From the NCBI GenBank assembly GCA_032358165.1, contig JAALGY010000020.1:558001-622000 (forward strand): a stretch of DNA of 64,000 nucleotides, given 5' to 3'. The translations under genes and the position numbers were made by a program. The notes beneath the pieces were generated by a model that made no database searches, was not told the origin of the DNA, and saw only the letters and a program-made list of their open reading frames with translations. Positions 39,426-64,000 of this stretch are shown here, in pieces. This DNA comes from Diplosphaera chodatii (taxonomy: Eukaryota; Chlorophyta; Trebouxiophyceae; Prasiolales; Stichococcaceae). Each line of letters begins with the position of its first letter. Positions within the stretch are counted from its first letter, which is position 1.

Positions 39426-40898
39426 ATGGCAACCGAGGCGATGCCGCATCAGCAGGGTGGTAGTTCAGACTCCGTAGGCGACGCAACAACTTTTGGAGTG
39501 GTCACAGTCAGTGACAGGGCCAGTGGGGGCGTATACCAGGATCAAAGTGGACCCGCCATCCTGCAATTCCTTGCCGAGGCGGTGCACTCAGAGTGGGTCG
39601 CACGCTGCCTCTACTGGACAGGAGTGCACGACAGTACTCCTCTGCACTCGATTTTGACGTGTCACACACGAAGCCACCAGCCTGGTGAAGGCCAGCGTGC
39701 ATGCATGCATGCCGCTTGGCACGGCTGATGCAGAGAACTGACTGGCACACAATCTGGCAATTGGTGCACGGAGCCCACGCACGCTATGCTTGATCGTGTT
39801 GCGGCACTGGTGGACAGGTGGAAGGCGGAGTACAGGCTTGTGCCAGATGAGCAGGACCAGATTGAGGCCGTCCTCAGGGACCTGGTGAGCGGCAGTTGCA
39901 AAGAATGATGTCGTGACAGCCTCGTCCCCCTGCTGAAGCATCACTTGGGATGGAAGCTGCTGCGCTCATGTTGACTGCTGTGTGTGCACCCGCCGCTGCC
40001 TGCCACCCACTGACATGCACCTTTCTGCCGTGAGGCGCGCTCCTGACATGTTGATCAGGCAATCCTCAGGCGCGTGTGCATCTGCAGGTGGATACAGTGG
40101 GCTGCAGCATGGTGATCACCACAGGGGGCACTGGTCCAGCGCCGCGGGACGTCACACCAGAGGCCACAGAAGCGGTACTGTGGCGCCAAGTGTCCCAACT
40201 CTGTATGTTGATGGCCAGCACAGTGAGATCATTACTGCATACCCAGGATAGCAGTATGTCATGTGCATCAGTGCACGCTTACATGATGCAGTGTGGGATG
40301 TGGCGCAGGTGTGCAGCCGCATGATGCCGGGCTTTGGCGAGCAGATGCGTGCCATCAGCCTTAGGTGCATTGCTGCGCACCTGGCAATCTGCAGCGTCGT
40401 GCAGCGCAGCGGACAGACCCACACCATCAGCTGACATGCAGACTCCTCAAGCAGATGATAACTTGCACTTGATGTGGCATTTGACATTACTTTGGGTGTG
40501 CCGACGGCAGGCATGTGCCGACAGCCATACTCTCACGACAGACGGCAGGCATCCGTGGGAAAGCGCTCATCCTGAACCTGCCTGGCAAACCCAAGGCCAT
40601 CCGAGAAACGATAGACGAGGTACCCGCCAGGCTCCTGCGTTGAGTCTGTGCATCGACATGTGACAGCTGTGGGCATTGCTCGACGATCTGGTGCCAGGCA
40701 TGTACCAGCATACTATTTATTGCTGGCAACAATGACAAGAAAAAAGAAATGAGTCTCGCTTGGTGTATGCTGCTGCAGATCTTCAAAGCAGTGCCATACT
40801 GCGTGGACCTGATTGGTGGGCCGTACATTGAAACCAATGAGGCGGTTGTCACGGCCTTCAGACCACCTGCAGAGCTCCGCAAGGAACGGCTGCAATAG
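39426..40898 (+). CDS. Molybdopterin adenylyltransferase (MogA/Cnx1 G-domain)
   Basis: Activates molybdopterin by adenylylation before molybdate insertion, in molybdenum cofactor synthesis. The first exon begins MATEAMPHQQGGSSDSVGD and contains FGVVTVSDRASGGVYQDQSG, the hallmark N-terminus. Then come KAEYRLVPDEQDQIEAVLRD (about 39820-39885), VGCSMVITTGGTGPAPRDVT followed by PEATEAV (about 40100-40170; the GGTG loop binds molybdopterin), MMPGFGEQMRAISL (about 40323), PTAILSRQTAGIRGKALILN with LPGKPKAIRE (40500-40605), and a last exon IFKAVPYCVDLIGGPYIETN ending ELRKERLQ with TAG at 40896-40898. It is a stand-alone G-type domain; no fused MoeA-like E domain is present between the neighbours, unlike land-plant Cnx1. 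No clear transit peptide. Confidence 0.88.
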
Positions 40899-45547: not shown

Positions 45548-46043
45548 CGGCTACCTGAATGGTTTACAACGTATTTTTTGCGCTCATGGCGCCACATGAC
45601 TGTGTTGTCGTTATCAGCGAGCTACCCTCAGTACATACTGCACACTTCTGTTGTTTTCCTTCAGTGCTGCATGCTCAGGAGTTGTGATGGCGGTGGCATT
45701 TTGCCTTGCAACATGATGATATGTGTGTCTGCTGCTATCATAACGTTCTCTGCTGCACCGTATGTGGTCAATGCATCCCAGTCCCACTCTGCCAGCGCAT
45801 CACGACCTTCTTGCTGGGTGTATTCATAGATACATACACTACCCTCGCGAGCTGGAAGTGAAACGTGCCCCTTTTCGCCGGCGGACCATGACATTGGACG
45901 GGGATGCAGCCGCAGAATGCGTCCCGGGCTTCCGTCTGACTGTCAGACTCACGCATGGCCCAAAAGCTCCAGCTACCTTTGTCCGAATATTGCGTTGGTC
46001 TGCACCGATCGATGCGTCATATTTTACACTGACGATCGAGAGC
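45548..46043. other. Spacer between the two CbbY-like genes
   Basis: About 500 bases. It holds the promoter of copy 2 and, at 45906-45938, the second (inverted) copy of the 33-bp element. An open frame crosses it (TLDGDAAAECVPGFRL...), but it is probably 5' UTR or duplicated flank rather than a gene. Confidence 0.4.
45906..45938 (-). repeat. Inverted copy B of the 33-bp element upstream of CbbY copy 2
   Basis: Reverse complement of 42983-43015 with one mismatch, about 105 nt upstream of the copy 2 ATG. In one frame both copies can encode AAAECVPGFRL, copy A on the minus strand and copy B on the plus strand, and the mismatch there is synonymous. Confidence 0.8.
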
Positions 46044-48463
46044 ATGAGCGTGGCGATGACGGGCCTGGGTGGCCTGCTGAGTTGGCCGGACCTCAGAGCA
46101 GCCCCGCTTGCAAAGCAGTGGTAAGGCATGCATGCTTCATATGATCTCCTGCAAGCTGTCTTGCACGCAATCGAAGAACACAAGCAGCAGATTTTGACTT
46201 GTCAAGCCCAGATGCCCAGTTCATATGCTTAACGGTATGAGCAGCTCAAAACTTCGAGGTGTAGCCGGTCAGGCTCAGAATGATCGATCATGCTTTGGTG
46301 ACGGCCACTTCAATATTGACAGGTGCTTCACATCGAGTCACACGCCACCGCATGCCGCGGGTCGCAGGCAAGCTCCCAGGGTGGTGCGCAGCAGCCGGCG
46401 CTGTGCGGTGTGTGTGCACGCCGCCGCAGATCTGAAGGCCCTCGTCTTCGATTGCGATGGTCAGTCACTGCGTTGCACCTTTACGCATGCCCTGTTGACC
46501 TCTTTCAGCCTGACGCATCACCTTTCTTGCAGTCCCTTAGTCTACTATGCGACCGCTTGTCAGTGCATGCTGATGCCGGGCCAATCGACCGCAGGGGTCA
46601 TCCTGGAGTCGGAGGACCTGCACCAGGAAGCGTTCAATGCCGCCTTCCAGCACTTTGACGTCAGATGCCCAGACGCGGATGGCGGCGGTGTCGTCACCTG
46701 GGGCCGCCAGCTGTATGACGACCTGCAGAACCGTGTCGGCGGCGGCAAGTTTAAGATGCGCGACTACTTTGGTGAGTTTCCGATCATGTCACGGGCCGTT
46801 GAAGTGCATGACCCTCTATGATATCCACAACAACTTCCAGACGTACATGAGGACAGCATGCGCAAGCTGTCAGGATAAACATTGCAAAGTGCGGGGTTGT
46901 GGTACTTCCGTATTTTTATAGCTGAGGAAGGCCACACAAGGCTTGATGTTACTGACGAGGGTCCCATAGGCACATCTGGACGCCAGCACATTATTAAAGG
47001 TGCTGATGTCTGCAGGTAAGAATGGGTGGCCCACATCGAAGATCGCGCCCGATGCGCCGAAGACAGAGGACGAGCAGGCGGCACTGATTGACACGATCGA
47101 GGACTGGAAGACGCAACGCTACCAGGAGCTCATAGGTAGGCAGGCCTGTGGCATGCACACTACATCGCATTCTGTGCATTTGTTCTGGTGCGGCATCCAA
47201 GCAGACCCAGATGAGGAATGCCTCCATGAATACTTCGGTCATCAATGGCGGGCTTTGGCCCCATTCTGGTGCATCAAAATGGACGAACCCTGCAACCTTA
47301 GTAGCGGCATGGTGCAGTTGCTTGCACCACATTCCATACTGCCAGTCATATGCAGTGTCTGCGTCATGGTGACAGGTCTCAACATCTCGTCCACGCAGCA
47401 TATCACTCCCTTTGCACAGGCAGCGGCAAGGTCAAGCCTCGGCCAAATGTCGTCCGCCTTATGGACGAGGCGAAGGATGAGGGCCTGAAGCTCGCAGTGT
47501 GCTCAGCGGCCACCAAGTCGTCTGTCATCTTGGTGGTGGAACAACTGCTGGGCACGGACCGCTGCAAGGTGCATGGTGCAATTACTGGATACTGCAGTAC
47601 TCCCCGACTTCGGGCCAGCACAAGCTTGTGTTTTGTGAGTCAGTGGTGTATCAGCTGTAATGGCGCTGGCACGCTGCAGTGAGCTCAGCATGCAAGCGCC
47701 AAGGCATGTCGAAGACAGTGCATTGAGAGCACTGCCATCGGCCATGGCACAAGCACAACTGCCAATGACGAGTGCAGTGGTAGGGCAGACCTAGACCCGG
47801 AAGTACATGCAGCAGGTGCTGATCAGTTGCAAATCGAGCCCTTGATGGTCGGTCTGCAGCCTGTGCACTTGTGCCGTGCAGGGGCTGGACGTCTTCATGG
47901 CAGGTGACGATGTGCCAGAGAAGAAACCGGACCCGTCCATCTACGCCATTGCTGCCGAGCGGCTGCAGCTGGCGCCGGCGGAGTGCCTCGTTATCGAGGA
48001 CAGCGCCATGGGTCTGAAGGTGCGTCGCATGTCCAGCAACCTTAGAGCTGTCTGCATGCACGTGTTCCGACAACATGGCGGTACACCCTTGCTGCCATGC
48101 AATACCAAATTTTTCATGCTCCGACACTATTGATAGTGGTACATGCTGCTTGCCTCAAGCATGATGATGCATGCAAATATTGCTTATCGCAGGCAGCACT
48201 CGGGGCGGACATGCGGTGCATCATCACGTATACCTCGTCCACAGCAACAGACGCCTTCGAGGGCGCCGAGCGCATCTTTGGTATGAGCCCTGAGCTGCAG
48301 TTGCGAACACGACTGAGTGCACTACCACCACGCCCCTGGCCAGGCATGGCATTCTACTATGAAATAATGTGTGGACGCTGATTCTGCAGGTGATCTTCCA
48401 GACGACCTCAGCATTGCACAGCTGCGGGAGAAGCCTGCCGAGGTGCAGGACACAAGGGAATGA
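46044..48463 (+). CDS. CbbY-like HAD phosphatase, plastid type (copy 2)
   Basis: Tandem paralogue of the preceding gene, with matching exon order. Start MSVAMTGLGGLLSWPDLRAA; a second ATG at 46056 is equally possible. A transit-like exon leads to ALVFDCDG (about 46440). Then GVILESEDLHQEAFNAAFQH and YDDLQNRVGGGKFKMRDYFG (46598-46770), NGWPTSKIAPDAPKTEDEQA (47020-47135), KVKPRPNVVRLMDEAKDEGL and KLAVCSAATKSSVILVVEQL (47428-47550), DVFMAGDDVPEKKPDPSIYA and AECLVIEDSAMGL (47881-48020), ADMRCIITYTSSTATDAFEG (48205-48265) and LPDDLSIAQLREKPAEVQDT ending with TGA at 48461-48463. Differences from copy 1 are mostly conservative and catalytic residues are intact, so both are probably active. Copy 2 is closer to the plant consensus in the TYTSSTA segment. 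Confidence 0.9.
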
Positions 48464-49071
48464 GACCAGCTGCTTACTGCACCACAGTAACACATTTTCG
48501 GGGTCTGCTTCACCAAAGAAGCATCAGCATCGGTGAACCCTGGTGCTTCACATAGCACTTTGGCCTGTGGAACAGCAGTAGTATGGTCGTGGCTGCACAT
48601 GCTGATGGCGTCGGACAGGCATATTGCTTCCCCGGTGTGGTTACAGTGGCCGTGCATGTCCAAACGGTGTCTACTTCCATTGTTAATGCGGTACACGTCT
48701 GGGTCGCCTGTTTCACCAACACATTGGTAGCTGTGATGACTCCGGAGGTAGGGGCACAACCCTGAAATCTGAACTCTGCACAGAGTTTCGTCCCACCCTG
48801 GACTGGGCCAGAGGTTTCCATCGGGACCAGTTGCCCCTTTGCGCACACAAGTTGCTTGCGACGACTGTGACGCAGTCGGCCCCAGCGAACTTGAGACTTC
48901 TGTGCTGCAGCCAGGGCAGGCTACAGCGGTTGCCATTGCTCGGCATCGTGCTCACCTACTGCCTCACCCTTTACACCAAGACTGCTGAGCAAGGTACAGC
49001 GTCAGCCGCTCGACGCACGCTTGGCATTGAACAGGGCGTGTCACATCGGGGGAACAGGTGCTGGGGCCAGC
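48464..49071. other. Intergenic region upstream of proteasome beta-1
   Basis: About 600 bases between the CbbY copy 2 stop and the proteasome start. No exon or recognised promoter motif was seen. Confidence 0.35.
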
Positions 49072-50629
49072 ATGGCTCGCAGATTGTCCCAGCAGGAAAC
49101 CTTCGACCCCGCGACCAACTCGCAAGAGGCGGTGCAGTTGGGGGTGCGCACCCCGCCTCTTTGCCCTTACCACATGCAGCTGTCTACAAGGATGACGTGC
49201 AGGCTGAGAGTCGTTCAAGCGGCTGGCTGTATGTCATCCAGCGCATGACGTGCTGCTGGCAGCGCGCTCCCAGAGTAACGGGAGGTGCAGCAGAGCTGCA
49301 TGCCAAACCCAAGAAACGTGGACAGATGCTTACGTTGCATGCGTGTACATGATGCTGCAGACGACCATCATGGCAGCCAGCTTCCCTGGCGGCGTGGTGC
49401 TGGGTGCTGACACTCGGACGTCCACGGGGTCGTATGTTGCCAACCGCGTCACAAACAAGCTGACACAGCTGGCAGACAAGGTGCTTGGCTTGCTGCCACA
49501 TGCCTCGCTGTGCCAACCTCGGGTCACAGTGGAACACTGTGCGTGCTGCCACTTTCTTCTGGCACTATCCAAGCTGCTTGCCCTGGTATTGTCGGACTAC
49601 ATGCAGACTGGTCGACACCCTGCTGCCGCAGGTGTTCGTCTGTCGGTCAGGCTCAGCGGCAGACACGCAGGCGATCAGCGCCTACGTGGAGCACTACATA
49701 GAGCAGCATGAGATGGAGCTGGGGAGGGAAGTGGCTGTCAAGACGGCCGCCAACCTGGCGATGCAGCTTGTGTACAACAACAAGGTGGCTGGCAGCATTG
49801 CACGTTCCTTTGGTGTTGCGAGAGCCCTGCTATGCGAGAACTGCAATCAGGATGTGTGAGCCCGATTTGCAATCTGGCGAGCTTGGCAGTTGACAAGTGA
49901 GACGATTCAAAGCAAGGCTGCAGCACTGAGATATTCGTCTGCTGTTGGTGCGCAGAACATGCTGCAAGCGGGCATGATCATCGCGGGGTGGGACCCCAAC
50001 GAGGGTGGCGCCGTGTACGCGCTGCCGCTGGGCGGAACACTGCTCAAAGTGCCGTTCTCAATAGGTCGGCAGGGCTGGAGAGTCACCTGCAGCAATGCGT
50101 CACCTTGTTGCAACCTTCCAGCTGCCAGACTGTAGGCTTCTGGCAGCTGCGCAGCCATACAAATGCACTTTACTGGCAGATCGTGTGTGCCATATTGATG
50201 TTGCCTTAATTGACACAGGCGGCAGTGGCTCAGCATACATCTACGGCTTTTGCGACCGCAACTGGCGGCCAGACTTCAGCGAGCAGGTGCGGCTGCTTGG
50301 ACTTTGCTGGCCTGACAACTATACTTGCTGCCTCACTGGGCACCACTGGGCACTACCGCCCAGCTTTCACGTTCTGTGCTCTCTAGCGAGCAAAACACCC
50401 AGTTTACGGGTTTACGTCAGTTTTTCCCACGTATCGCCTGCAGGAGTGCCGGGACTATGTCGTCAAGGCAGTCACGCTGGCGATCGGGCGCGACGGCTCG
50501 TCAGGCGGTTGCGTGCGCACAGTGGTGGTGACACAGGATGGCATCAAGCGTGACTTCGTGCCCAACACGCAGCTGCAGCTGCCTGGGGAGGCGGCCAGGC
50601 CGCCGCAGCCAGTCGCCGTCACAGCCTGA
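49072..50629 (+). CDS. PBA1: 20S proteasome subunit beta-1 (caspase-like active site)
   Basis: N-terminal-nucleophile peptidase of the 20S core, cleaving after acidic residues. The propeptide exon begins [20 protein letters not shown] (ATG at 49072) and ends QLG. After the intron the mature enzyme begins [20 protein letters not shown] and [20 protein letters not shown], giving catalytic Thr1, Asp17 and Lys33 by family numbering. Then [20 protein letters not shown] and [20 protein letters not shown] (49632-49745), [20 protein letters not shown] and [17 protein letters not shown] (49955-50065), [20 protein letters not shown] (50222-50282), and [20 protein letters not shown] with [12 protein letters not shown] (50443-50550). 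TGA is at 50627-50629 after a short Pro/Ala tail. Full length, with every active-site feature visible; identification is very secure. Confidence 0.95.
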
Positions 50630-52409
50630 AATGGGAGATGACCCTCAGTTCGCGCCTCCTAGAGGGAGCCGGGCGTGTGTCACAAGGGCCGCGCGAAGAA
50701 TCGGAGCAGTCCACAGCTTGTTTGGCGCAAACCGCTTCAGGAGCCACATACATCTGCGATCTTGTGCTCCAGGCTGCTCCACTGGCAACTGGCATCTCGG
50801 ACAAGTCTTGCAACCTATTCACCACGTTGAGACAGGATGGTGCTGTCAGTGCGATTGCTAGTCATCGATCTGACTGTTGGGCTTCATTGCTCAACCCCCT
50901 CACGTGGCTGCCAGGAGCAAATGCCCAACAGATCGAGATCATTTGTCGTGGCTGTGACTGTGAAAGTACTAATGTTGACCCAGCCTGGTGGCTAACGCCA
51001 CTGCACGAGTGCACGCAGCAGTCGGGCGCAGGGGTGCCAGATGGCGGATCTTACCCTCGAAAGCTACTATACAGACGATCGTCACTGCACGAGTTGAGGA
51101 GCAACGACGTGACAGCTTGCAGGCTATGGGCAATGTAGCTGCAACGCAAGTGGGGCACGCGTCACCAGTCCACCAAGCAATGTGCATCCGCCCGGCAAAG
51201 ACCCAGGATCTGGGCGGAGGACACAGGCACTCCTGCATGATGAGGTGGCAGCGCCGTAAGAATCGATGCACACAAATGCAGAGTGGAGAAGGAAACGGCT
51301 GAGCGGCCACGGCCGTTGCATCCCACACGCTCATGGTGCAGCAGATGCCGTGCAGCCGTCGGAAGACAGCAGCCGGGAGCTGTTCCTGCAGCCCCGCCGC
51401 CACGGCAGCAGCGAGATCGTGCCACATGACCCCCCTGCCGACCTTCGTGTAGCTGCTCGCAGCTCCAGCTTATGACGCTGCGGGTGTGAGTGCCGCACCA
51501 GTTCCACAGCAGCGGCGGCAAGCAGGCAGCGCATCAGTGCCCAGCTGCCTGTGTGGTGTGTGGGCGGCGGTGGCAGTTGCAGTTTGCTTGCTCTCTGTTG
51601 CGGCTGGTGTATGTGCATTGCAGACCTTGCCCACGACGACCACTTGGTATACATCCCGGTGTGACGGATACTGCACTTAGTGAATATGACTCATGTTGAA
51701 GCTGCTCGTCGTCCTTCGATTGTGTGACAATCTTCGATCAGTGCGGGGTGGCACAGCACATGGGCCCACGTCACGCGCCAGCCTGGTACATGGAGACTCG
51801 TGATGAGGCAGCACTCCGTACACCAGTCCGTCTCGCATATATAGCTTCGCCGCAGTATTGAACGGCACGTTTCGTGGCGCTGAAGAACGTCTCCGCAGCC
51901 ACTGCAACAGAGCTTCGCAGCATGCTGCCGAGGCGCTAAGCCGGGTTTGCCTGGCAGCAAGATATCTCCAGCACAATTCAGGCAAGTGGGCCGCCCGTGC
52001 GGCGCGCATTGCTTCGGGCTACACGTTGGCCATGCAGGTTGCGGAGCAGCCTGATGCGGCGGCTACAGCGGCGCTAGCCTCTGCGCTGTCCGCCTCGTTG
52101 CCATGCACGCGCAGGGTCCAAGTAGCAAATCCATAGCTGTGTGAGCTCCAGATGCAGGAAAGACCGGCATAGAGTCCAGTTGACATGTGATGTCGCACTC
52201 GGCAGGCCTGATCGGCTTGCCTCTGACGGTACCAGCCAGCTGAGTGTGTAGTGCCAGAAGTGACTCCGTGCTGATGGAAAGCCCTTCGGCGCAGGTGGAC
52301 ACAATACCGTCTGCTGCTTTGCTAATCTCACGGGTGTACCTCCTGCTGGAGCAGCGTGCGGTGGGCGGAGGGCTTTTTGCTTCGCTGGGCGGTGCCGCAG
52401 GTGTGCACA
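50630..52409. other. Unassigned region upstream of the first iGluR-like gene
   Basis: About 1.8 kb without a recognised gene. Several stretches look exon-like on the plus strand: a possible start MADLTLESYYTDDRHC at 51042; SEDSSRELFLQPRRHGSSEI and VPHDPPADLRVAARSSSL before a stop at about 51475; ASQHAAEALSRVCLAARYLQ at about 51913-51972; and RVYLLLEQRAVGGGLFASLG at about 52333-52390. The last two could be N-terminal exons of the receptor gene or a separate small gene. No consistent splice chain could be fixed and the opposite strand is also open. Confidence 0.25.
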
Positions 52410-55400
52410 ATGGCGGCGCAAGTTCTCAGGGTCGCCGCGACGCAGCGCCCGCCTTTCGGTAGGATTCTAGACGGACACAATCCAGAAATGTCGATGAGAC
52501 GGCTTTGATAGCCGTACGAGGTCCTGGTTGGGCAGCATTAGTGTTGATAGATCAGCCACCCAGCTCCGCATCTGACATGGGTTGAAGGATCATGTGTTGA
52601 TTACAGTGTTTGTGGACCCCGCCCGCACGGGGAACGCCCGCTTCTACGGCCTGCTGGTGGACCTGCTGCCGACGCTGTTGTCATACGGGTGAATTGCGCT
52701 GCCTCGTGCCGCAATATCATCGCTCCCACATGTGGCGCACTACTCTTGATACCCTCTGCCCCCTCACACTGCGACAATGTCGTCCTGCCACTGCAGATTT
52801 GGGGGCGGAGACAACACTTCGCTTGTATACTACGACATCCCGGCCAGCGGCGGCGTGCTACGCCCCGATGGCACCTGGACCGGTGCGGAATCTGGCAGTC
52901 TGCCCTGTGCTGGTGCCCGTCGAGCACCTGTTTCGTCTTGTCTGCCAGCACGCCCACCGCAGCATCAACCACGCCAACCAGCAAACAAAGCGATGCCATA
53001 CGTGCGCCTGCACTTCCGGCAACATCCGGCGTTCGTCCGGCATGATTATTAAATGGGCGGCACTCGGTTGCAGGCATGATGGGGGAGCTGGTCGAGGACC
53101 GTGCAGACATAGCCGCCTTCCCGCTGACGCTGACGCTGGACCGCGCCCGCGCCGTGGACATGTCGTACAGCTTCATGAACGGGGGCCTGGGCATCCTGGT
53201 GACCGCTGCGGCTGACCTGTTGATGCCTGGCCAAGGGCTGCAACCGCATGCAACCCTGTCACCGCGCACAGTCGCGGGCATTCGCTGGTTTCCTCCGGCT
53301 GATGGACACCGCAAGCCAGGCAGAGCCGCGTGGACGTGCTGCAGGTGTCTGCTGAGAAGCAGGGCACGGATGCGCTGGCCTTTCTGAAGCCCTTCACCTG
53401 GCAGCTGTGGCTGGCGATTGTGGCGTCCATGCTCGGCGTCGCCTTCATCGGCTGGCTGCTGGCCCGCCTGTCGCCACTGGGCCGCTATGAGGTGGACATT
53501 CGAGGCAGTCAACTTATGTATCTACCTTTTGAACCGTTTTGAATCGTTTTGAAAGCATTGCACTTATCGAGGCAGGCAATGGTCATGTTTGTTTTCATGC
53601 CAGTCGGACTCACCGGCTGCCAACCTTCACGCAACCCTGAATCTGCAGATCAAGCGGTTGCGGAGGCTCGATGTTGAGCACCATGACACCAGCGAGTATG
53701 TTGTGGAGGCAGGTGAGGATCTGCAAGTGGATCCTCCTGGTGCGCACATGCTGGCTTCCCCCTTGCCTTTCATCTGATGTACTGCTTCCTGCTGACTGGG
53801 TGTGGGGCCCCTGCAGCAAACGACAGCTCCATCATGGAGGCAGCTTCTACCCAGCTGGGGCAGGTACCTCCCTGACCTTGGTTTCGGCCCCACCTGTCCA
53901 CCATGCTGCCTCGCACCGCACGTTGATGACATTGCCGCAGCGTGAAGTCATTCAAGGCTGACATCCCTGCGCTGTCCCCCTGCATCACAGATGCCCCAGC
54001 CCCGCAGCCGCAGCTGGGCAGTCCGCATCGTGGCTTTATCGTATGGCATCTTCTCCATCATTGTGCTCTCGTCGTACACCGCCAACCTGGCAGCGTTCCT
54101 GACGGTGGGGACTCATTTTTCTGCCTGTGAAAGTTGCACATGTGCCACTTGAACGGTCTGGCCTGTCTTCACTGCATCCACTCGCTGGTGCCTTTGTCAC
54201 TTGCGAGGTGCACTTGTCATCTGGCAGTTTTAGATGTGCTGGGCAGCTCATCATGACACTCTGCACAACCTCAGCCCTTGATTTTACACCTTGGGCAGTG
54301 CTGTGCTGCTGCTCACTGCTGCTGTCCCTCAACATTGTGCAGGTCAAGCAGCTGGTGACGACGGTGGACAGCACCATCAGCCTGCTGCGAAATGGCGGCA
54401 GCTTTGCCGTCAGCAGCGGCGGCTCCACCGTTACCTACTTTCAGAATGCGCTCGACCCGGTGGCTGCTGCGCTGTCATCTAGGTATGTCGAAAGTTCTTA
54501 GGATAGAAATCATCCCTGTTGGTGGGAGACTTCGGTTATATCGCGCATGCAGCATCAACTTGTGCTGCGCTCTTGATCCTGTGCGTGACTGTGGACGCAG
54601 ACGCCCACATCGGCAGTCACTGTTCCAGTGGAGGGTCTGAACTGCTCTGGTGTGCTTCCACAGGATGCGGATCTATGCTGGAACAGCTGACGCAGTGGCT
54701 GCAGTGCGGGCTCTCGACGTGGTGGCGTACATAACAGACTACACCACGCTGAAGTACTTTGCATCGGTGCGCAGCCTGTTCCCTGTTGACTGTGGGTGAC
54801 GATGACAACCCATGTTCAGCAATGGGCACATGACCTAGGGGCTTCCTGCATACTCAAGTTGGGTGCTCTTTGCAGTCACTGCCGTGCGATGTGGACATCA
54901 ATGGCCAGGCGTTTGGCCCCGGCAGCCTGACATTTGGACTCCAGAAGAACTCCATGCTGCTTCAGGGATTGAATCAGGCGGTGCTGAAGGTGGGTGCAAC
55001 GGACATGTGGGCAAGATGTAAGATATATCCCAGCCCTGAAAGAAGGCGCTGCTGTACACCTAGAACATTGTCATGGCGCTCAACATTGGCTATCATGACG
55101 GTGAAGGTACAAAGCAATGGTGTGCTAGACCAGCTGATCAGGAAGTGGACCACAGACATCGACCAGTGTAAGGCCGACCAGGTGTGACCTTACTGCACGT
55201 GTTCTATACTGCCAGTGTTTCGGCAGGCAGTCAGAGAAGCCAAGACATGCTTTAGCCCTTCAACCGGAGCAGGCAGTCCTTGGGTCGCATGTTGCAAGGC
55301 GCCTATGGTGCAACAGCTTTGTCCAGGGCCCTGACGCTTGTGTTCTGCCGCAACAGACTGACACCAACCGGCTGAACGTGAACTCGCTGGTGGGGCTGTT

Positions 55401-56562
55401 CTACATGCTGCTGCTGGCGGTGGCGCTCGGGCTGTGCATCGCGGCGGCCGAGCGCATCCTGTCAGCCTGCCCTTCCATCAGCCACCGATGTGACCAGCTG
55501 TGGCGGACAGGTGCACAGCATTTGCACGATACATCATATGACGTTTCCCTTGCCTCCCAAACCATGTCTTACCAAGTGGTTACCAGTTGCTGAACTGCCA
55601 AGGTGAACTGCCCCTGGCGGTCAGCCGGAGGCACTCTGCTGCAGGTTGGCAATAATCGTCTACACCATCGCCCGCAGTCCAGCATGTGCTGCAGTCAGTC
55701 TGCCCATCAACACGAGGTCCCATTGACCATGCAGGCCACGACCTGGTGACGAGGTGCCTGCCAGAGCAGCACCGGCCAGATGTGCCATCGCCCACCGGGT
55801 TCTCAAAGTCCGCGCTGGACATCAGCCGCTCCTTCGCGCCACAGCGGACGAGCGCTCAGAGTCAAAGCAGGTTGCCACCATGCTATCCTTGCAATGGTCA
55901 CAAGACGCATGCAATGCCACCATGCTATCCTTACAGTTGTCACAAGACGCATGCAATGCCAAGCACGCTGCGACGGCCGTGTGCTCACTGAGGTCGCCCA
56001 TCGTGATGCATCAGCAATTGCTTCTCTGCTGCTGCTGCTGCTGCTGCGATGCTGCTGCTGCGATGCGAGGAAAAAGCACTTGACATAGACAGTGATTCCT
56101 GTGTGCTATTGCTGCAGGAGCTCTGGCATCAGCAAGCCCGGCAACTATGGGCTTGCAACACACAAGTCGACAGCGCAGGCAGCCGCAGACGCAGTCGCCG
56201 CTTTCGATGCGACGGAAGCAGAGGAGTTGGAAGTAGCAGTCAAGGTCGCTGTTCAGCACTGCCCCTTGTTGCTTGCTGTCCATTAGCATATGGGCGGCGG
56301 CTTGCAGTGAGTGTATGTACACATGGGGCTGAACAGGCTGTGTGAAGACACATGTATGGCATGCCAGCAGCACAGCGAAGCGTGGTATGTTTGGTGTAGC
56401 CTGCTGAGGAACCGAGCTGCATCGCTGCAGGCTGGCGACTACAGCACAGATGGCTCCGTCGCCACGAATGGTGAGGACGACAGAAGAGCCGACTACCGGC
56501 GTACGACCAGCGCCATCAGCGGTGGTGGCACTGCAAGGATCATATGTGCCGCGACGAAATAA
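52410..56562 (+). CDS. Ionotropic glutamate receptor-like channel (copy 1)
   Basis: Ligand-gated ion channel of the iGluR superfamily. Order: S1 lobe MAAQVLRVAATQRPPF joined across an intron to VFVDPARTGNARFYGLLVDL; TSLVYYDIPASGGVL; GELVEDRADIAAFPLTLTLD and RARAVDMSYSFMNGG (the conserved ligand-binding Arg, about 53078-53200); M1 WQLWLAIVASMLGVAFIGWL (about 53400-53460); IKRLRRLDVEH; pore region NDSSIMEAASTQLGQ then MPQPRSRSW; M3 IVALSYGIFSIIVLSSYTAN and LAAFLTV (54030-54105); S2 lobe SLLRNGGSFAVSSGGSTVTY, VVAYITDYTTLKYF (Asp), SLPCDVDINGQAFGPG to KWTTDIDQC (disulphide pair); M4 LVGLFYMLLLAVALGLCIAA (55390-55448); cytosolic tail PSPTGFSKSALDISRSF and a last exon ending ISGGGTARIICAATK with TAA at 56560-56562. 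No amino-terminal domain or signal peptide was found before S1. An intron after LLSYG (52690-52797) is absent in copy 2. Confidence 0.85.
55874..55957 (+). repeat. Two-copy 42-bp tandem duplication
   Basis: Units at 55874-55915 and 55916-55957 are near-identical, both beginning GCCACCATGCTATCCTT and ending CACAAGACGCATGCAAT. The array lies in an intron or late exon of iGluR-like copy 1, just after the DISRSF-coding exon. Confidence 0.85.
56026..56064 (+). repeat. CTG trinucleotide microsatellite
   Basis: Seven CTG units followed, after a CGATG-type interruption, by three more and a second CGATG. The array lies in the 3' part of iGluR-like copy 1, most likely in an intron. Confidence 0.85.
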
Positions 56563-57923
56563 AGCGGCGCCTGACACTCACCTCTAAACTACATAACTAG
56601 CTTGGTGCCTGGGCGAATATTGGCGCTGTATACTGGCAGCCCGTGACACCAGACCCGCAAGAGTGTGTGGCAGTTTCATGCTGAGATATTCGCCTGTGGT
56701 GATGAGTTGCCTAGGGAGGGCGCACACGAGGTCGCTGCGGATGTGCTGCAGGGGCGGTGGTGGGGTATAGGACTGTCTCTTGGCATCTGCTTGCTTTGAT
56801 TCGAAGTGTCATCCAGTGTGGTGGTCTTAGTGCCATTGCGAATCGTGCTTCGAAGTGTCTAAGTGGTTTGTGCAACAACTATTTGCAGCGTTGCTGGGAT
56901 GGAAGCTGCTGGGCACATCTCTTTTCGCGCTCTCGTTGGTGTAAGTCTGCATGCAATGGCGCATTCTGCGCTGCAGCGCTTGTGGCACGTAGCGGCAATT
57001 GTTGCCCTGATTCGTTGCTGAACGTGCAGAGAGTTGGACTATTGGGGTTGTATTGAAGTGATGGTAAAGAAGTCTTTTCGCAAGCAAATGAGCAATCGCA
57101 ACAGCTGTTACGTGAGACTTGCACCGGCAGGCAGCGGAAGGCCAACATACTGTCACTCATGTCCTGGTCGAATTGCTGTGTCAACCAAGTCCGCAGCACA
57201 CAGCTCTACAGCACTGTAGTCGACAACCCCCACCACCGCCCATTGAACCTAGGGATACTATCGCAGCTTCGCAGGTTTGTTGTGCGGCATGGCCGCCCAG
57301 GAGCGTAGTCTCGGACGGCCCAAGTGACCAGATGTCATGGTTGACTTCACAGCTGACACTATCAAGGGTTCAGCTGCATGCGTCACAGGCAGTGCTGGTC
57401 TGGTATGAGCTCTCGACGATCTGGTGCGCGCCAGCGAGAATTCAGCACTTCTCATGTACACCACCTGCACTTGGGCAGAAGCCAGCAGTAGTGGCGCAAT
57501 GCAGCAGCCGTCCAGTTCACAAAACGTGCACACATTGCTGGTCTCAAACACAATATTTTGCTGATTTTGTATGCCTATCGACTACACGTCTTGGCGCGTA
57601 GTCAGGCCTGTGAGCCTGGCTGTCTGCACGCACGCCACGCATAGCAGGTGCACTATCCGACCCGCCAAGAGGACGAGAGCAGCACCAAGTCTCAGGACAC
57701 CAGATACGGACTGCCAGTCGTATGCCGCAAGGTGCTTGCTGCCTCAAAGCGTCGTGGCTGCTGGCGTGCGTGCGCTGCATGCCGCAAATAGGTAGCTGCG
57801 GCATGAGCCCTCAGGCCAGGGCTTTGTACTTTCCAAATACTGGAGTGGCCAGCCGCCTCACCCTGCTGGCAGCGTGGTGTAAAATGCGTCGAGTTCTCTT
57901 GCCCGTCCTGGCTGCAGGCGGTG
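56563..57923. other. Spacer between the two iGluR-like genes
   Basis: About 1.36 kb. No recognised gene. A plus-strand open stretch at about 57660-57795 (SYAARCLLPQSVVAAGVRAL) ending near a GT donor could be an N-terminal exon of copy 2, but it matches no family and has no clear counterpart in front of copy 1. Confidence 0.3.
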
Positions 57924-60900
57924 ATGGCGTCGCTGCGGGTGGTTGCAGCAGACAGACCGCCTTTTGTGTTCATCGACTCCGCACGCAGCGGCAACGCTCG
58001 CTTCTACGGCCTGCTTGTGGACCTGCTGCCGGTGCTGCTGTCATACGGGGCCGCCGCTGGTGACAGAACGGCCCTGGAGTACTACGCAGTGCCTCCCAGC
58101 GGCGGTGAACTTAAGAATGGCAGCTGGACAGGTCCGGAGGACAACGCACCATTTTCTACTGTGGCCCACTGTTGTGACCAAGTGCCGAGATCACATAATG
58201 CTGCGTGAGAGCTGCGGTTCGGATCAGCTCTCGCGCACATTGAAGTCATTCTTGTGCAGTGCTGCTCAACAGGGATTATGGGGGAGCTGACAAATGGCAA
58301 TGCAGATATTGCGGCGTTCCCGCTGTCACTGACACTGCCTCGGCCGACGTACGTCGGCCTATCGTACAGCTATCTCAACGGCGGCATCGGTATCCTGGTG
58401 AGTAGCACTTCCGCGCAAAACTAGAAACTTGAGCTGCATTTGCTCCATGCAGTGTCGTGGCACATACTTAGCAGCACCGTGGCTTTTTTGGCAGGTGTCT
58501 GCCAGGAGGCAAAGCGCAGATGCACTGGCGTTCCTGCAGCCCTTTGCCTGGCAGCTTTGGCTAGCAATCGTGGCGTCCATGCTGAGCGTGGCGGTCATGT
58601 TCTGGGTCCTGGCGCGACTGTCCCCCCTGGGCCGATTTGAGGTGAGGCCCCGCCCACACAACCCTGGCAGCAGAGTGTGACAGCCTGCAGCTGCTGCCTG
58701 AGCACCGCCAAACACGACTTGCATCCGTCCACATGGCGCCTTGCGTCACATGCCATGCTGGCTGCGGGCATAGCAGCAGGCAGTTGCGGCTGACGGCTCG
58801 TTCGGCCTGATGCACTGCATGCAGTGTGCAACATTTTGTGCTGCTACCATTGCAGGTGAGGCGGCTGCGGAGGCTGGATGTTGAGCACTTGTCTGTGGCA
58901 GAGTATGTAGTGGAGTCAGGTGCGTGGCTTCGACTGTCGCCTTATGTTGCAGGTGCAGGCTGTGCATGAATGCGAAGATCAATTGGCATACAAGCTTGGC
59001 AGATTGGTCAAGATGGTGACAAAACTTTGTCCCTTGTGCTGCAGCAAATGATAGTGTGTTCATGGAGGCAGCCTCTACACAGCTGGGCCAGGTCAGTCAA
59101 TGACATTGACAATATGTGCCCCTACTGACGCCACTACAGGCACACGAGGCATGCACCTGAGAGTCCTGGTCTGGGTTTGTTTGCTGTTGGGTGTCACCCG
59201 CTGCTGGCACAACTGCTGCAGATGCCACAACCGCGCAGCCGAAGCTGGGCAGTCAGGCTGCTGGGCCTGTCCTACGGGATCTTCTGTGTCATTGTGCTCT
59301 CGAGTTACACCGCCAACCTGGCAGCTTTCCTGACGGTGCCCATTGACCTTGAAATTACTACGCCCTTGTTGCTGTTCGAGTATGTTGGCCCGTGCTTGCA
59401 TGTTCCCAAATGCTCCCAGTCTTGCATGACACAATATGCATGTACAGAGGCGCTTACTGAGCCAGCCTGTTGAGCGGTGCAACAGGTAAGGCAGCTGGGG
59501 GCAACTATAGACAGCCCGCTGAGCCTGCTGCGGAACGGCGGCAACTTTGCGGTCAGCTCGGGCGGCAGCACTCTGAGCTATTTTCGCTCAGCGCTGGACC
59601 CTGTAGCAGCAGCGTTGGCCCCCAGGTGCTTGCCTGCCGCTCTACCCCAACGTGTAGCATTCAACACCACGGCACCAAATGCAGTCCCACCCTGCATCAG
59701 CAACGTGTGACTCAGCACTTTGGCACTGAGGTTGTGCATCAGGGTGGCCAGCGGGGGCAACAGGAATATACTTGTGAGGGCGCAGCGAAGCATCACCCCT
59801 TCAGGTGTTTGAGGAGTTTCAGTATGCTGTTGATCGCAGGATGCGGGTGTACTCCAGCACGAATGCTGCGGTGGACGCTGTGCGCCGCGGCAGGGTGGTG
59901 GCCTTTCTGACCGACGCAGCCACCCTGCAGTACTTTGCGCAGGTACTTACTGAGCACTGCTGATGTCCATGTGCTTGCTCGGAGTACACCTCCTGCGTGT
60001 TCTGTGGTCGACTTGCAGCACCAGGGTCCTCATCGTTTGTCATGTGCCGCAGAGCTCAGAACCCAGCTTGTGTGGTGCATGCAGTCGCTGCCGTGTGATG
60101 TGACGATCAGCGGGCAGCCATTTGGGCCAAACTCCCTGACGTTTGGGACGCCCCGAAACTCGACGCTGCTGGTGACCCTCAACAGGGCACTGCTGGAGGT
60201 GAGGTCGTGGGAAGCTCGGCTGGAGGCGCACTCGCATGCTTGCTGCCCAGTTCTGGCCGGCTGTTCCAGCTGCTTGGCGGCTGCCCCGCTCAGCGATCGA
60301 ACATCACTGCAGGTGGAAAGCAACGGCGTCCTGGACCAGCTGATCAGGAAGTGGACAACAGAGATCGACCAGTGTGCCACCAGCGCTGAGGTGGCCTGCT
60401 ATGTGATTTCAGCCTATGCAGCATGGGTTGCACGGCAGCCTCTGTATGCAGTGGCCTCTGACATCGCTGCTGGATGTGTCATCGAGTTTCAGGTCACCAT
60501 GTTCGGCCTGTCAGCCGAAATCTTATGTCTTCACTACTATTGCAGGTGGACACCAACCGGCTGGACGTGCGCTCGCTGGTGGGGCTGTTCTACATGCTGC
60601 TGCTGGCGATGACGCTGGCGCTGTGCATCGCCGGCACAGAGCGCTTCCTGGCAGCGTACCCGAAGCTGCTGCAGGGGCTGCGCAGGCCGCTGGCGCCCGT
60701 CGCAGTGGCAGGTGCGTGGCAGAGCGCCTTACACGCGCATGCAGCAACACGCGTCGGCTAAGATGCTACTCTGACAGCTAGCACAGGCAGCTGCACAGTC
60801 GTTCGCAGTACTGTGCACTTCTGGCCAGAGGACGCCAGTACAACATCCTGGCCTGGACCCAACCTGGCACAGGTCAGCGTCTGGCGAGCAACATCATACC

Positions 60901-61372
60901 GGAGGAAAAGCGGTGGGTGCCGGACCACGGCTTTTCAAGGTCCGCTCTGGAGATCAGCCGCTCCTTTCGGCCCCGAGGTCGCAGGTGACTGAGTTCTGCA
61001 ACTGACGCCGTGACAGAACTGCCCCTGGCACACTGAGACGACCACATTTATCACGGGCGTGGGTTCTGGAGGTGCATTCCATACCTAGTTGAATGTGGGC
61101 CTCAGACGACGAGGCCTTGCCATTGCAGCCTTGGCGGCCCAGCGTTCGCCGCACGCGCCGCCGCTGCAGCCAACGCAGTGGCGGCGGCGGATGCTGCGGG
61201 ATGCAGTAATGGGCGCAACACCAGCAGCTCTGACGTCAACAGCTCATTCGGCACTGCGTCAAGCGTCGTCACCCCAGATGACACTGTGCACGACAGCAAC
61301 GCCGCGCCCAGGACAGCGTCTGAGGAGAACCGTGCAGCCGCCACGCTCTTTGTTGCTGGTAACTGCATGTAG
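57924..61372 (+). CDS. Ionotropic glutamate receptor-like channel (copy 2)
   Basis: Tandem paralogue of the preceding receptor with the same domain order. S1: MASLRVVAADRPPFVFIDSA, FYGLLVDLLPVLLSYG, IMGELTNGNADIAAFPLSLT then LPRPTYVGLSYSYLNGG (ligand Arg kept). M1 WQLWLAIVASMLSVAVMFWV (58550-58610). Pore region NDSVFMEAASTQLGQ and MPQPRSRSW. M3 LSYGIFCVIVLSSYTANLAA (59265-59325). S2: LSLLRNGGNFAVSSGGSTLS, VVAFLTDAATLQYF (Asp), SLPCDVTISGQPFGPN to KWTTEIDQC (60085-60372). M4 LVGLFYMLLLAMTLALCIAG (60576-60635). The tail includes DHGFSRSALEISRSFRPRG and an Ala-rich then Ser/Asn-rich last exon ending ENRAAATLFVAGNCM with TAG at 61370-61372. As in copy 1, the visible coding region starts at S1 without an amino-terminal domain. 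Ion selectivity and ligand cannot be read from sequence. Confidence 0.85.
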
Positions 61373-61752
61373 CTGGGGCGGGGCGGGATGACTGTTGATG
61401 CTGCGCTCGTCTAATTATATGGATGTGCTGTCAGAGCGCTTCCACTGCTGTTTCTTTGGTTTCACTGCACATCTGTATTGGTTGTGGGGCACCAGATTTA
61501 GGAGGGGGGATGGGTTTGACCGCTCCAAGAGCTGTGCGGCAGGGTCTACACAGCAGTAGTGCTTGGCACGCATTTCAACAGCTTTTCGCACTTGGTCCTG
61601 ATTGAGGTGTACTATTGGTCCGGAAAGCCTGCGTGTCTCCTGGCCAGCCCAAATCAACACCAGCCGAACGTCTTTGACATGGCGCCGCTTTGTTGGGGAA
61701 CCTGATGTGCTAGATGTTTTGATTTCTGAGGGAAGTCCGTCTTCTTGCGGAC
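61373..61752. other. Short intergenic interval before the SET-domain gene
   Basis: About 380 bases between the copy 2 stop and the SET-domain start. No gene or distinct motif was recognised. Confidence 0.4.
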
Positions 61753-63876
61753 ATGGCCAAAAAGGCTGGCAATGAGAAGCGTAAGAAGCTGAAGAAGGCT
61801 GGCATCTGCTCAAGCCCAGTGGACGCACACGGTGCCGCTGATTTTGCCTCCAATGGGGCCACTTTTGAGGCGTGGCTCGATGGTGCCGGCGTCGAGTGGC
61901 GAGAGTGCTGCAGGCTAGGGGAGGCGGCCAGCGGAGGACAGGGCGTATTTGCGGTACGGGACATCGCAGCAGGGGAGACTGTCCTGGCGGTGCCAGATGA
62001 CGCAGTGCTGATGCCAGACGACTGCTGTATCGCCAAGGTGACACCAGGCAGTGCAGGAACGTGCCGCACATTCGTGTAATTGCTGCACACAACATGCATG
62101 CGAGACCGACAAACGGGGTATGCGGCGTGGTGTGCTGCGGCTCCAGCGCTGCACAGCCGCATGAGACAGCACGTCTCAGACTGGATCAGACGTTGAATCA
62201 CGTGGAGCTTACGTGACTTCAGGAGCTCCAGGAGGCTGATCTGGGGCACGACGGCCGCGGCGGTGACCGTGGCGAGAGCATCGCTCTGGTGCTGGCATTG
62301 ATGGCCGAGGCTTATGCCGGCGACCAGTCCAGGTGATCCGGCAATGCTGTTACCGGTGCTGAATCACGCTGGGTGCCGGTCGATACTGTCTTGTGTGACG
62401 TTGCAGAGCCTTGCAGGCAGCAGGTTGCACCGCAGTTCACCAGGCCATGACGACCAGGCTTGCGGTGCGCTGCAGTCACGCAGCCTACATCGCGTCGCTG
62501 CCGCGGGCGATGCCGGGCGTGCCCATCTGCTGGGCTGCTGAGGACCGCGCCCTCCTGGCGGGCATCGCCGTGGCAGACAAGCTGGACGGCGCTGGCGGGG
62601 CACCGGGTCCCCTGCCTGATTGGGGACCCTCAATCCAGTTGCCATCACAGGCGAGCTTGATATAGAAGGACATGTACAGCACAGCAGCCTGCACATTCGA
62701 CTGCATTGCCGAATTGCAGATGCAGCCTGCAGATGTCTGCTGGGCGCAGAGCATCGTACCATGGCAAGCGGGCAACGGGATCAGCTGATGGATACACCTG
62801 CAATGCGTGACCGCTGAGACGTGCACTGCGCTTCACCCAGCAGGTCGACTCAGCCTGGGAGGAGGTGGCGCAGCCTTTCGTGGCACAGCACAGCCAGCAT
62901 TTCGGCGCTGCAGAGTCGGATTGGCGGCGGTGCTTCGAGTGGGCAACTGCCATTGTCGCGGCGTACAGCTTCGAGCTGGGCGATGACAAGTACCAGGTGC
63001 GTGTCCAATTCGTCACATCGTAACAGGATGCCGTCTTGCACGTAGTCGCACAGGAGGCCGTCTGCAAGCAGGCAGGCAGCAGCCACACAGTCGGGTGCAG
63101 GCCCCAGCCAGTGCCGGCTGTTTTGCATGGGACAGCCACCTCACGTGAGATTGCCAAACCGCGGTCACCTTGCCCCATTGCTGTGCGACTGTAGGCGATG
63201 GTGCCGCTGTGGGACGCGCTGAACCACATTACAGGACGCTGCAATGTGCGGCTGCACCACGACGAAAAGGGCGAGTGCCTGCAGATGATCGCTACAGGTC
63301 ACATGGTCTGTCCAAATCGCAGAGTCTTGTGCCAAGATGCCCTGGGGCAGGCGTCCCGCATGGCATTCAGTCAAGCTTCTGGTAGAAGTGGCTTGGTGCA
63401 TTGCAACGCTGGCAGCACAATCTTCAATTGCCCGTGTACCTCGCAGAGCCGATCCCGGCAGGCGGCGAGCTCATCAACAACTATGGCGAGCTGGGCAATG
63501 CGGAGCTGCTGCGGCGGTTTGGCTTTGTGGAGCAACGCAACCCACACGACTGTGCGCAGGTGTGCTGTGTGTCAGTCTCGTGCAGCAGGCCACAGAGGTG
63601 TTGCGAAATAATTGTGAACATCTTCGCCCAAGCGCCACCCACACACATGGTCCTCGAAGCAGGCGATTGCTTTGAATCTGATATCATGGCTGTGCTCATC
63701 GCCCTGCCGACTCACAGGTGCCCTGGACAGTGGTGTACGACGCAGCGGCCTCGGTGCTGTTCAGCGACGACGCAGCAGAGGCATTGCAACAGATGTTGTC
63801 GCCGTCGGAGAAGGAGCTCAAGCGCCGCTGGAGGCGCCTCAGGTATCAAAGGGTGCGCCATCTGAAGCTGCTCTGA
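61753..63876 (+). CDS. SET-domain protein lysine methyltransferase (SETD6/Rubisco-LSMT-like)
   Basis: Transfers methyl groups from S-adenosylmethionine to protein lysines. The first exon (ATG 61753) starts MAKKAGNEKRKKLKKAGICS, a lysine-rich stretch that could be a nuclear signal, then TFEAWLDGAGVEWRECCRLG, GGQGVFAVRDIAAGETVLAV (start of SET) and PDDAVLMPDDCC. Later exons: ESIALVLALMAEAYAGD (62277), AYIASLPRAMPGVPICWAAE (62481), VDSAWEEVAQPFVAQHSQHF and FEWATAIVAAYSFELGDDKY (62848-62995), MVPLWDALNHITGRCNVRL (63198; the NH motif binds SAM), and VYLAEPIPAGGELINNYGEL with GNAELLRRFGFVEQRNPHDC (63433-63555; catalytic Tyr in NNYG). A last exon begins VPWTVVYDAAASVLFSDDAA (63718) and reads to TGA at 63874-63876. 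A GT within that exon (about 63842) could be a donor, so the gene may continue beyond the window. The insert between SET halves and the Rubisco-LSMT-type C-terminus are typical; the substrate is unknown. Confidence 0.8.
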
Positions 63877-64000
63877 AGATCGTACCAGCCGCCATCAGCA
63901 GCCGCGCTTGCAACCTCTGCTGCACACCCGGTGTGCAGTGCCAGAACGCCACAGTGCTGGGGTTCGCAACGGCTGCCTATGCATCACCTGCAAGCTTGCT

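What the first reader, a model, noticed from the sequence alone, without database searches (positions are those of the whole stretch)
52410..61372. Tandem pair of iGluR-like channels that begin at the S1 lobe
Both copies encode S1-M1-pore-M3-S2-M4 with the ligand Arg, the S2 Asp, the SYTANLAAFLTV gate and the S2 cysteine pair. In both, the recognisable sequence starts right at the S1 strand ([LV]-R-V-x-A-x-x-x-P-P-F), at equivalent ATGs. No LIVBP-type amino-terminal domain is visible in the 1.8 kb and 1.36 kb upstream. Plant GLRs carry that domain, so these look like a minimal, prokaryote-like layout in an alga. How they enter the membrane without an obvious signal peptide is an open question.
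Basis: partly seen in the sequence, partly recalled or inferred. Interest (0 to 1): 0.75.

Follow-up and report, generated by a model that had tools for sequence, protein, structure and literature searches.

The report
Stripped-down glutamate-receptor channels in alga
Two neighbouring genes, apparently of a green alga, encode glutamate-receptor-type ion channels that seem to begin directly at the amino-acid-binding part, without the large front domain and probably without the usual export signal, and relatives in other algae share this odd start.

Summary
Two intact, intron-rich iGluR genes lie in tandem: A (16 exons, 52410-56562, 564 aa) and B (13 exons, 57924-61372, 553 aa), each with S1-M1-pore-M3-S2-M4, ligand Arg, S2 Asp, SYTANLAAFLTV and S2 Cys pair. 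A second tandem pair lies in a duplicated block on contig C7; all 43 matches of an own-genome protein search fall in these four genes. dN/dS between block copies is 0.10 and 0.05. Upstream, 0 of 1898 windows show codon-type conservation, and two Coccomyxa models are equally short. In 17 of 18 sequences reaching the S1 start, a Met lies 3-8 codons before it; in the 18th, 1. I conclude: ATD-less algal iGluRs, probably without cleavable signal peptide. 'Prokaryote-like' is half right: M4 is present and the gate is eukaryotic. Kinship to plant GLRs is unresolved. Probably an amino-acid-gated cation channel; whether S1 crosses the membrane as an N-tail or the binding domain faces the cytosol is open. 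No transcript covers the 5' end, and genome-wide ATD profile searches were weak.

The parts
52410..52458 (+). iGluR A exon 1: start ATG and first S1 strand (MAAQVLRVAATQRPPF)
   Evidence: A' reads through here without the A-specific intron 1
52607..52688 (+). A exon 2, S1
52797..52882 (+). A exon 3, S1
53074..53198 (+). A exon 4, S1 with ligand Arg (R96)
53345..53491 (+). A exon 5, end of S1 and M1
53649..53712 (+). A exon 6, M1-pore linker (basic)
53817..53863 (+). A exon 7, pore loop
53991..54104 (+). A exon 8, M3 with SYTANLAAFLTV gate
54343..54482 (+). A exon 9, S2 with SGGST
54664..54766 (+). A exon 10, S2 with Asp (D310)
54876..54989 (+). A exon 11, S2 with first Cys (C323)
55107..55181 (+). 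A exon 12, S2 with second Cys (C378)
55357..55510 (+). A exon 13, M4
55735..55870 (+). A exon 14, C-terminal tail
   Evidence: matches the uninterrupted ORF P0005
56118..56244 (+). A exon 15, C-terminal tail
   Evidence: P0005
56431..56562 (+). A exon 16, C-terminal tail and stop
   Evidence: P0005
57924..58131 (+). iGluR B exon 1: start ATG and S1 (MASLRVVAADRPPF...)
58273..58397 (+). B exon 2, S1 with ligand Arg
58495..58641 (+). B exon 3, M1
58856..58919 (+). B exon 4, M1-pore linker
59045..59091 (+). B exon 5, pore loop
59222..59335 (+). B exon 6, M3 gate
59486..59625 (+). B exon 7, S2 with SGGST
59840..59942 (+). B exon 8, S2 with Asp
60085..60198 (+). B exon 9, S2 with first Cys
60313..60390 (+). 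B exon 10, S2 with second Cys
60546..60711 (+). B exon 11, M4
60873..60984 (+). B exon 12, C-terminal tail
   Evidence: matches the uninterrupted ORF P0001
61129..61372 (+). B exon 13, C-terminal tail and stop
   Evidence: P0001
50630..52400 (.). upstream of A: no codon-type conservation with A', no convincing ATD match
   Evidence: 0 of 1114 windows at p<0.01
56563..57917 (.). upstream of B: no codon-type conservation with B', no convincing ATD match
   Evidence: 0 of 784 windows at p<0.01

Best explanation
A and B are functional subunits of an ionotropic-glutamate-receptor-type channel from a green-algal lineage (nearest full-length relatives found: Coccomyxa, Trebouxiophyceae) that lacks the amino-terminal LIVBP domain, and whose reading frame most likely starts a few codons before the first S1 strand, without a cleavable signal peptide. 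Inferred mechanism: S1 and S2 form a clamshell that closes on an alpha-amino acid (held by the conserved Arg, the SGGST segment and the S2 Asp), pulls on the M3 gate and opens a cation pore; subunits assemble through LBD, M1, M3 and M4 alone. The S1 lobe would be translocated as an N-terminal tail with M1 acting as a reverse signal-anchor (N-out). Shown by computation: gene structure, motifs, selection, lack of a detectable upstream domain, recurrence of the start position. Inferred: ligand, ion selectivity, tetramer, membrane insertion, cellular site.
For: Open spliced models, 27 of 27 introns GT-AG; 23 of the 27 were seen kept as GT-AG in the C7 copies. Pfam channel and LBD families in both. 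dN/dS 0.10 for A/A' (472 codons) and 0.05 for B/B' (470 codons). Upstream: 0 of 1114 (A) and 0 of 784 (B) overlapping windows with codon-phase bias at p<0.01, while 7 of 16 and 10 of 13 known exons reach p<0.01 when tested one by one. N-terminal (ATD-side) parts of 7 relatives gave one upstream match at E<=1 (0.63, 14 residues, in B'), while their LBD/TM parts gave 24 matches at E<1e-3 in genes A and B. Two full-length Coccomyxa models, 493 and 508 aa, carry LBD and channel families but no PF01094 and start MS....SVLRVVAAHRPPF. Start census: Met 3-8 codons before the LRV-type strand in 17 of the 18 sequences reaching that point, 1 codon before it in the 18th, P0044. No hydrophobic upstream exon joining in phase for A, A' or B. 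Uninterrupted ORFs of relatives match the splice pattern over the 3' part (P0001 across 7 B introns, P0005 across 6 A introns). Charges flanking M3 and M4 (best-scoring segments) favour the usual topology in 4 of 4 proteins, those flanking M1 in 2 of 4.
Against: No transcript covers the 5' end. Both ATGs lie 6-9 nt after a possible splice acceptor (A ...ccgcag|GTGTGCACAATG, B ...ctgcag|GCGGTGATG), so a short upstream exon is possible. B' and P0016 have a further in-frame ATG 10 codons before LRV. The phase test misses many single short exons: only 4 of 16 and 7 of 13 known exons are touched by a window at p<1e-3. Most sequences of the start census are database ORFs, which are made to begin at a start codon. 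At M1 the two Coccomyxa proteins lack the N-out charge bias. Translocating a ~115-residue N-tail without signal peptide is unusual (recalled, from no call).
Confidence: 0.66

Rival explanations
1. The channels lack the ATD, but a short upstream exon encodes a conventional signal peptide; the conserved ATG is internal or only an alternative start.
For: A plausible acceptor lies 6-9 nt before each ATG in all four copies, in the same phase. A 60-90 bp exon could escape the phase test. In PMC2924276 (passages) most annotated non-drosophilid sequences were judged 5'-incomplete because they lacked signal sequences.
Against: No ATG-to-GT exon (36-180 nt, within 1.8 kb) with a hydrophobic core joins in phase for A, A' or B; B' has 9 overlapping candidates from 3 ATGs, without counterpart in B. 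Only phase-0 joins to that one acceptor were tried. The Met position recurs in relatives, followed by variable, mostly small residues (A, S, P or V in 15 of 17), as at a real start.
Confidence: 0.2
2. Inverted or intracellular channel: without a signal peptide the S1/S2 clamshell stays in the cytosol (or an organelle matrix) and senses internal amino acids.
For: No signal peptide seen. For prokaryotic GluRs lacking a signal peptide the same idea is in print as one of three options (PMC2950845, passages). Coccomyxa M1 flanks carry no N-out charge bias.
Against: Flank charges: basic after M1 in A and B, basic before M3 in 4 of 4 and slightly basic after M4 in 4 of 4 proteins. The S2 Cys pair is kept in all 4 own copies, both Coccomyxa proteins and P0004, which fits an oxidising compartment.
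Confidence: 0.12
3. The models are 5'-truncated and an ATD lies further upstream or in rapidly evolving exons.
For: ATDs evolve fast (plant GLR ATD the most variable domain in PMC4995503, passages), and profile searches of unspliced exons are weak here: the PF00497 genome search found nothing although the spliced proteins match that family.
Against: B's upstream space is closed at 1.36 kb by A's 3' end. There windows of 78% identity or more with B', apart from those overlapping exons, span only 57260-57379, while the 29 known exons are 81-96% alike by mismatch counts. No phase bias in 1898 upstream windows. Both Coccomyxa models are ATD-less too.
Confidence: 0.03
4. Decaying gene fragments without function.
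For: ATD-lacking plant GLRs have been read as redundant copies being eliminated (PMC4995503, passages).
Against: Open frames, 23 of 27 introns seen kept in the block copies (one is absent from A', three not checked there), dN/dS 0.05-0.10; spliced-type ORFs in relatives.
Confidence: 0.01

Closest known systems
Coccomyxa 'Glutamate receptor 2' (Coccomyxa sp. Obi, P0002) and C. subellipsoidea WJX75_005119 (P0003)
   Same: 44% and 40% identity to B over 87% and 89%; S1-M1-pore-M3-S2-M4, no PF01094, start 8 codons before LRV
   Different: Pore and M3 differ (AYTANFASILTV), SGAT instead of SGGST, no N-out charge bias at M1
Animal AMPA/kainate receptors (e.g. GluA2)
   Same: The 60 PDB chains listed for B (of 371 matched) bear AMPA-type names (Glutamate receptor 1-4, GluA1), one only 'Glutamate receptor'; best E 1.5e-42; SYTANLAAFLTV, GST, S2 Cys pair, M4
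   Different: No ATD, no visible signal peptide, Asp instead of Glu in S2, separate clade in the tree
Land-plant GLRs (AtGLR3.4, Corymbia GLR)
   Same: Same channel core and ligand Arg
   Different: They carry the ATD, though 11.03% of surveyed plant GLRs lack it (PMC4995503, passages); SYTASL..ILT gate; not inside the algal clade, but sisterhood is not excluded
Prokaryotic GluR0
   Same: No ATD; only LBD and channel domain (PMC3483616, passages)
   Different: No M4 (PMC8517087) and a K+-channel-like filter (PMC12226733), both from passages; here M4 and no such filter
Insect IRs
   Same: Most lack the ATD (PMC2924276, passages)
   Different: By that paper they still have about 200 residues before S1; here 3-8 before the first strand. 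Not included in my tree

Membership tests
iGluR superfamily | Ligand-gated channel and LBD families (PF00060, PF10613) | tested here: met
   both proteins over the curated cut-offs
iGluR superfamily | S1-M1-pore-M3-S2-M4 order with ligand Arg and SYTANLAA gate | tested here: met
iGluR superfamily | Amino-acid-gated cation current | not testable with these tools
Eukaryotic iGluR with ATD | LIVBP/ANF-type amino-terminal domain (PF01094) | tested here: not met
   genome-wide profile negatives are weak,
Plant GLR | Groups with land-plant GLRs | tested here: inconclusive
   8 algal rows form a 100/100 clade without the 2 plant rows, but the tree was rooted on the plants, has no bacterial outgroup and long branches were flagged, so sisterhood is open
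Prokaryotic GluR0 type | No M4 | tested here: not met
   M4 segment, hydropathy 2.63 (A) and 2.49 (B)
Prokaryotic GluR0 type | K+-channel-type selectivity filter | tested here: not met
   pore reads TQLGQ
Secreted/plasma-membrane iGluR | Cleavable signal peptide | tested here: inconclusive
   none seen; no SignalP, no 5' cDNA

The most novel reading that the evidence does not exclude
A whole green-algal lineage of iGluRs has lost, or never had, both amino-terminal domain and signal peptide, and its ligand-binding clamshell faces the cytosol (or an organelle matrix), making it a gated channel that reads the cell's own amino-acid pool.
Probability: 0.12. Interest if true: 0.85.

Novelty: new variant of a known kind. 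Interest (0 to 1): 0.52.

Why it matters
Text passages seen here say that eukaryotic iGluRs possess an ATD (PMC3483616) and that all iGluRs contain one, with most insect IRs as the exception (PMC2924276); ATD-less plant GLRs are known but were read as loss (PMC4995503). A conserved, selected, ATD-less eukaryotic lineage would be a natural minimal receptor for asking what LBD and pore can do alone, how tetramers assemble without ATDs, and how a large ligand-binding N-tail is put across a membrane without a signal peptide. It would also give trebouxiophyte algae an amino-acid-gated channel class of their own.

Tried and rejected
Genome-wide profile searches for PF01094 and PF13458 gave nothing, but PF00497 also gave nothing although the spliced proteins match it, so these negatives count little; I relied on the comparison of block copies instead. 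Scans of genome contigs and viral contigs confirmed no relatives (0 of 80 and 0 of 41 pattern matches). The Rfam scan of the window had no match at the gathering scores. Literature: ten searches listed no paper whose title or shown abstract start describes ATD-less iGluRs of trebouxiophyte algae; this covers one open library only, several lists were capped (e.g. 25 of 73, 12 of 39), and of ten papers I saw passages, of none the whole text. Pseudogene and 5'-truncation readings were set low. I did not establish the species; the SSU rRNA search did not complete. No structure model was obtained.
Full report
What is there. The window is C18:558001-622000 of an 85.6 Mb, 55-contig genome. That it is a green alga is inferred from the nearest relatives, Coccomyxa (Trebouxiophyceae). 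Two iGluR genes lie on the + strand. Joining exons at GT-AG junctions gives A, 16 exons, 52410-56562, 564 aa, and B, 13 exons, 57924-61372, 553 aa, both open to a stop. Of the 27 introns, 23 are GT-AG at the matching place in the C7 copies (12 of 15 in A, 11 of 12 in B); A's intron 1 (52459-52606) is absent from A', and A introns 14 and 15 and B intron 12 were not checked there. The C-terminal exons were placed with the help of uninterrupted ORFs of relatives, P0005 for A and P0001 for B. Pfam finds Lig_chan, Lig_chan-Glu_bd and SBP_bac_3 in both, and no ATD family.

Copies in the genome. PF00060 finds four places, two here and two on C7. A protein search at E<=10 gave 43 matches, all 43 in these four genes (the tool calls its counts lower bounds). 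The C7 block is collinear: HAD-like hydrolase, proteasome subunit, A', B', SET gene. Between block copies dS is 0.44 and 0.48 and dN/dS 0.10 and 0.05; A against B gives dN/dS 0.34 (last C-terminal exons left out). The tandem duplication is older than the block duplication, as the tree also shows (A with A' 98/99, B with B' and P0001 99/99), and the genes are under purifying selection.

No amino-terminal domain. I aligned each upstream region with its C7 counterpart and asked whether mismatches concentrate on one codon position. Upstream of A 0 of 1114 and upstream of B 0 of 784 overlapping windows (60-150 bp) reach p<0.01 (first passes). Power: tested one by one, 7 of 16 A exons and 10 of 13 B exons reach p<0.01; windows at p<1e-3 touch 4 of 16 and 7 of 13. 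One short exon could be missed, an ATD of some 300 or more codons hardly in both genes. Conserved patches upstream of A (e.g. 51755-51844, 86% identity) show no codon bias. N-terminal parts of 7 relatives (six of them with PF01094) gave a single upstream match, E 0.63 over 14 residues in B'; two LBD/TM parts also gave weak matches upstream of A' (best E 0.018); LBD/TM parts gave 24 matches at E<1e-3 inside genes A and B. Genome-wide searches for PF01094 and PF13458 were empty, but the PF00497 search was empty too although the spliced proteins match that family, so I give these little weight. Two full-length Coccomyxa models are also ATD-less.

Where the protein starts. The frame before the ATG is open for 28 (A), 24 (A'), 39 (B) and 61 (B') codons; only B' has an ATG in it. 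Among proteins found with the N-terminal profile (32 hits; only 7992 candidates were scored), 12 reach the S1 start; with two Coccomyxa models and the four own copies that makes 18. In 17 a Met stands 3-8 codons before the LRV-type strand; the 18th, P0044, has an altered strand and a Met 1 codon before. The residues between are variable, and the second residue is A, S, P or V in 15 of 17. The other 20 hits were not counted: four enter at RPPF behind unrelated letters, probably after an intron, and 16 cover other exons. Bias: database ORFs are made to begin at a start codon. Where I read the DNA or where the ORF runs on upstream, the Met is there in 6 of 6 (A, A', B, B', P0016, P0017), but P0016 has the same first exon as B' (70 of 70 residues). 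Against this reading, a possible splice acceptor lies 6-9 nt before the ATG in all four copies. I searched for an upstream exon from ATG to GT, with an uncharged hydrophobic core, joining in phase 0 to that acceptor: 0 for A, A' and B, 9 overlapping candidates from 3 ATGs for B'. Other acceptors and phases were not tried.

Topology. Hydropathy finds M1, M3 and M4. There is no hydrophobic segment at the very N-terminus of A, B or P0002; P0003 has a weak one at residues 4-22 that is the S1 strand, and B, P0002 and P0003 have a moderately hydrophobic stretch inside S1 (residues 27-49, 1.45-1.58). By best-scoring segments, flanking charges at M3 and M4 favour the usual topology in 4 of 4 proteins, weakly at M4; M1 favours it in A and B but not in the two Coccomyxa proteins. 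The S2 Cys pair is kept throughout, which suits an extracellular or luminal domain. For prokaryotic GluRs without signal peptide, PMC2950845 lists pseudogene, other insertion mechanism or opposite orientation (passages); dN/dS makes the first very unlikely here.

Kinship. The 60 PDB chains listed for B (of 371) bear AMPA-receptor-type names, one only 'Glutamate receptor'. In a 20-row tree over 403 columns the 8 algal rows are one clade (100/100), beside 2 plant GLRs and 10 other rows (8 of named animals, 2 without organism name). The tree was rooted on the plants for drawing, treekit warns of long branches, and there is no bacterial outgroup. I therefore do not claim that the algal proteins are closer to animals or to plants, nor whether the ATD was lost or never gained. 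PMC12226733 reports Chloroplastida sequences in a lambda clade with sponge receptors (passages); whether these proteins belong there I could not test. Chlamydomonas GLR1 is described as not yet characterised (PMC8318260, passages).

Mechanism. Best reading: a tetrameric amino-acid-gated cation channel without ATD, N-tail translocated by M1. Gene structure, motifs and selection are shown; ligand, ions, assembly and insertion are inferred. Gln residues lie within a few columns of the AMPA-receptor Q/R/N site, but the alignment there is uncertain; ion selectivity is not predicted with confidence.

Noticed in passing
window 46001-64000 and C7:542476-560300: Collinear duplicated block (HAD-like hydrolase, proteasome subunit, two iGluRs, SET gene), 72-77% DNA identity over window 46001-52300; dS about 0.45 in the iGluRs. 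Window 20001-40000 showed no match on C7, window 1-3000 did (C7:490339-493269). Part of an old segmental or whole-genome duplication, or hybrid origin.
   Followed up: partly
C18:551757-554611 against window 1-2979: Inverted second copy of the sequence at the window's left end, just outside the window.
   Followed up: no
C18:601367-603547 and window 46320-48463: The HAD-like hydrolase gene has a tandem relative just upstream, in both the C18 and the C7 block.
   Followed up: no
window 55873-55961: 42-bp unit repeated 2.1 times inside an intron of A, followed by a CTG microsatellite at 56026-56066.
   Followed up: no
window 51755-51844, 51905-52009, 52205-52294: Patches upstream of A that are about 81-86% identical to the A' region without codon bias, with much less similar sequence between them; possible promoter or 5' leader.
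   Followed up: partly
P0016 (JGI contig of 2568 bases) against C7 copy B': The first-exon protein of a metagenome contig equals that of B' over 70 of 70 residues, so a close relative or the same species is in JGI data.
   Followed up: partly
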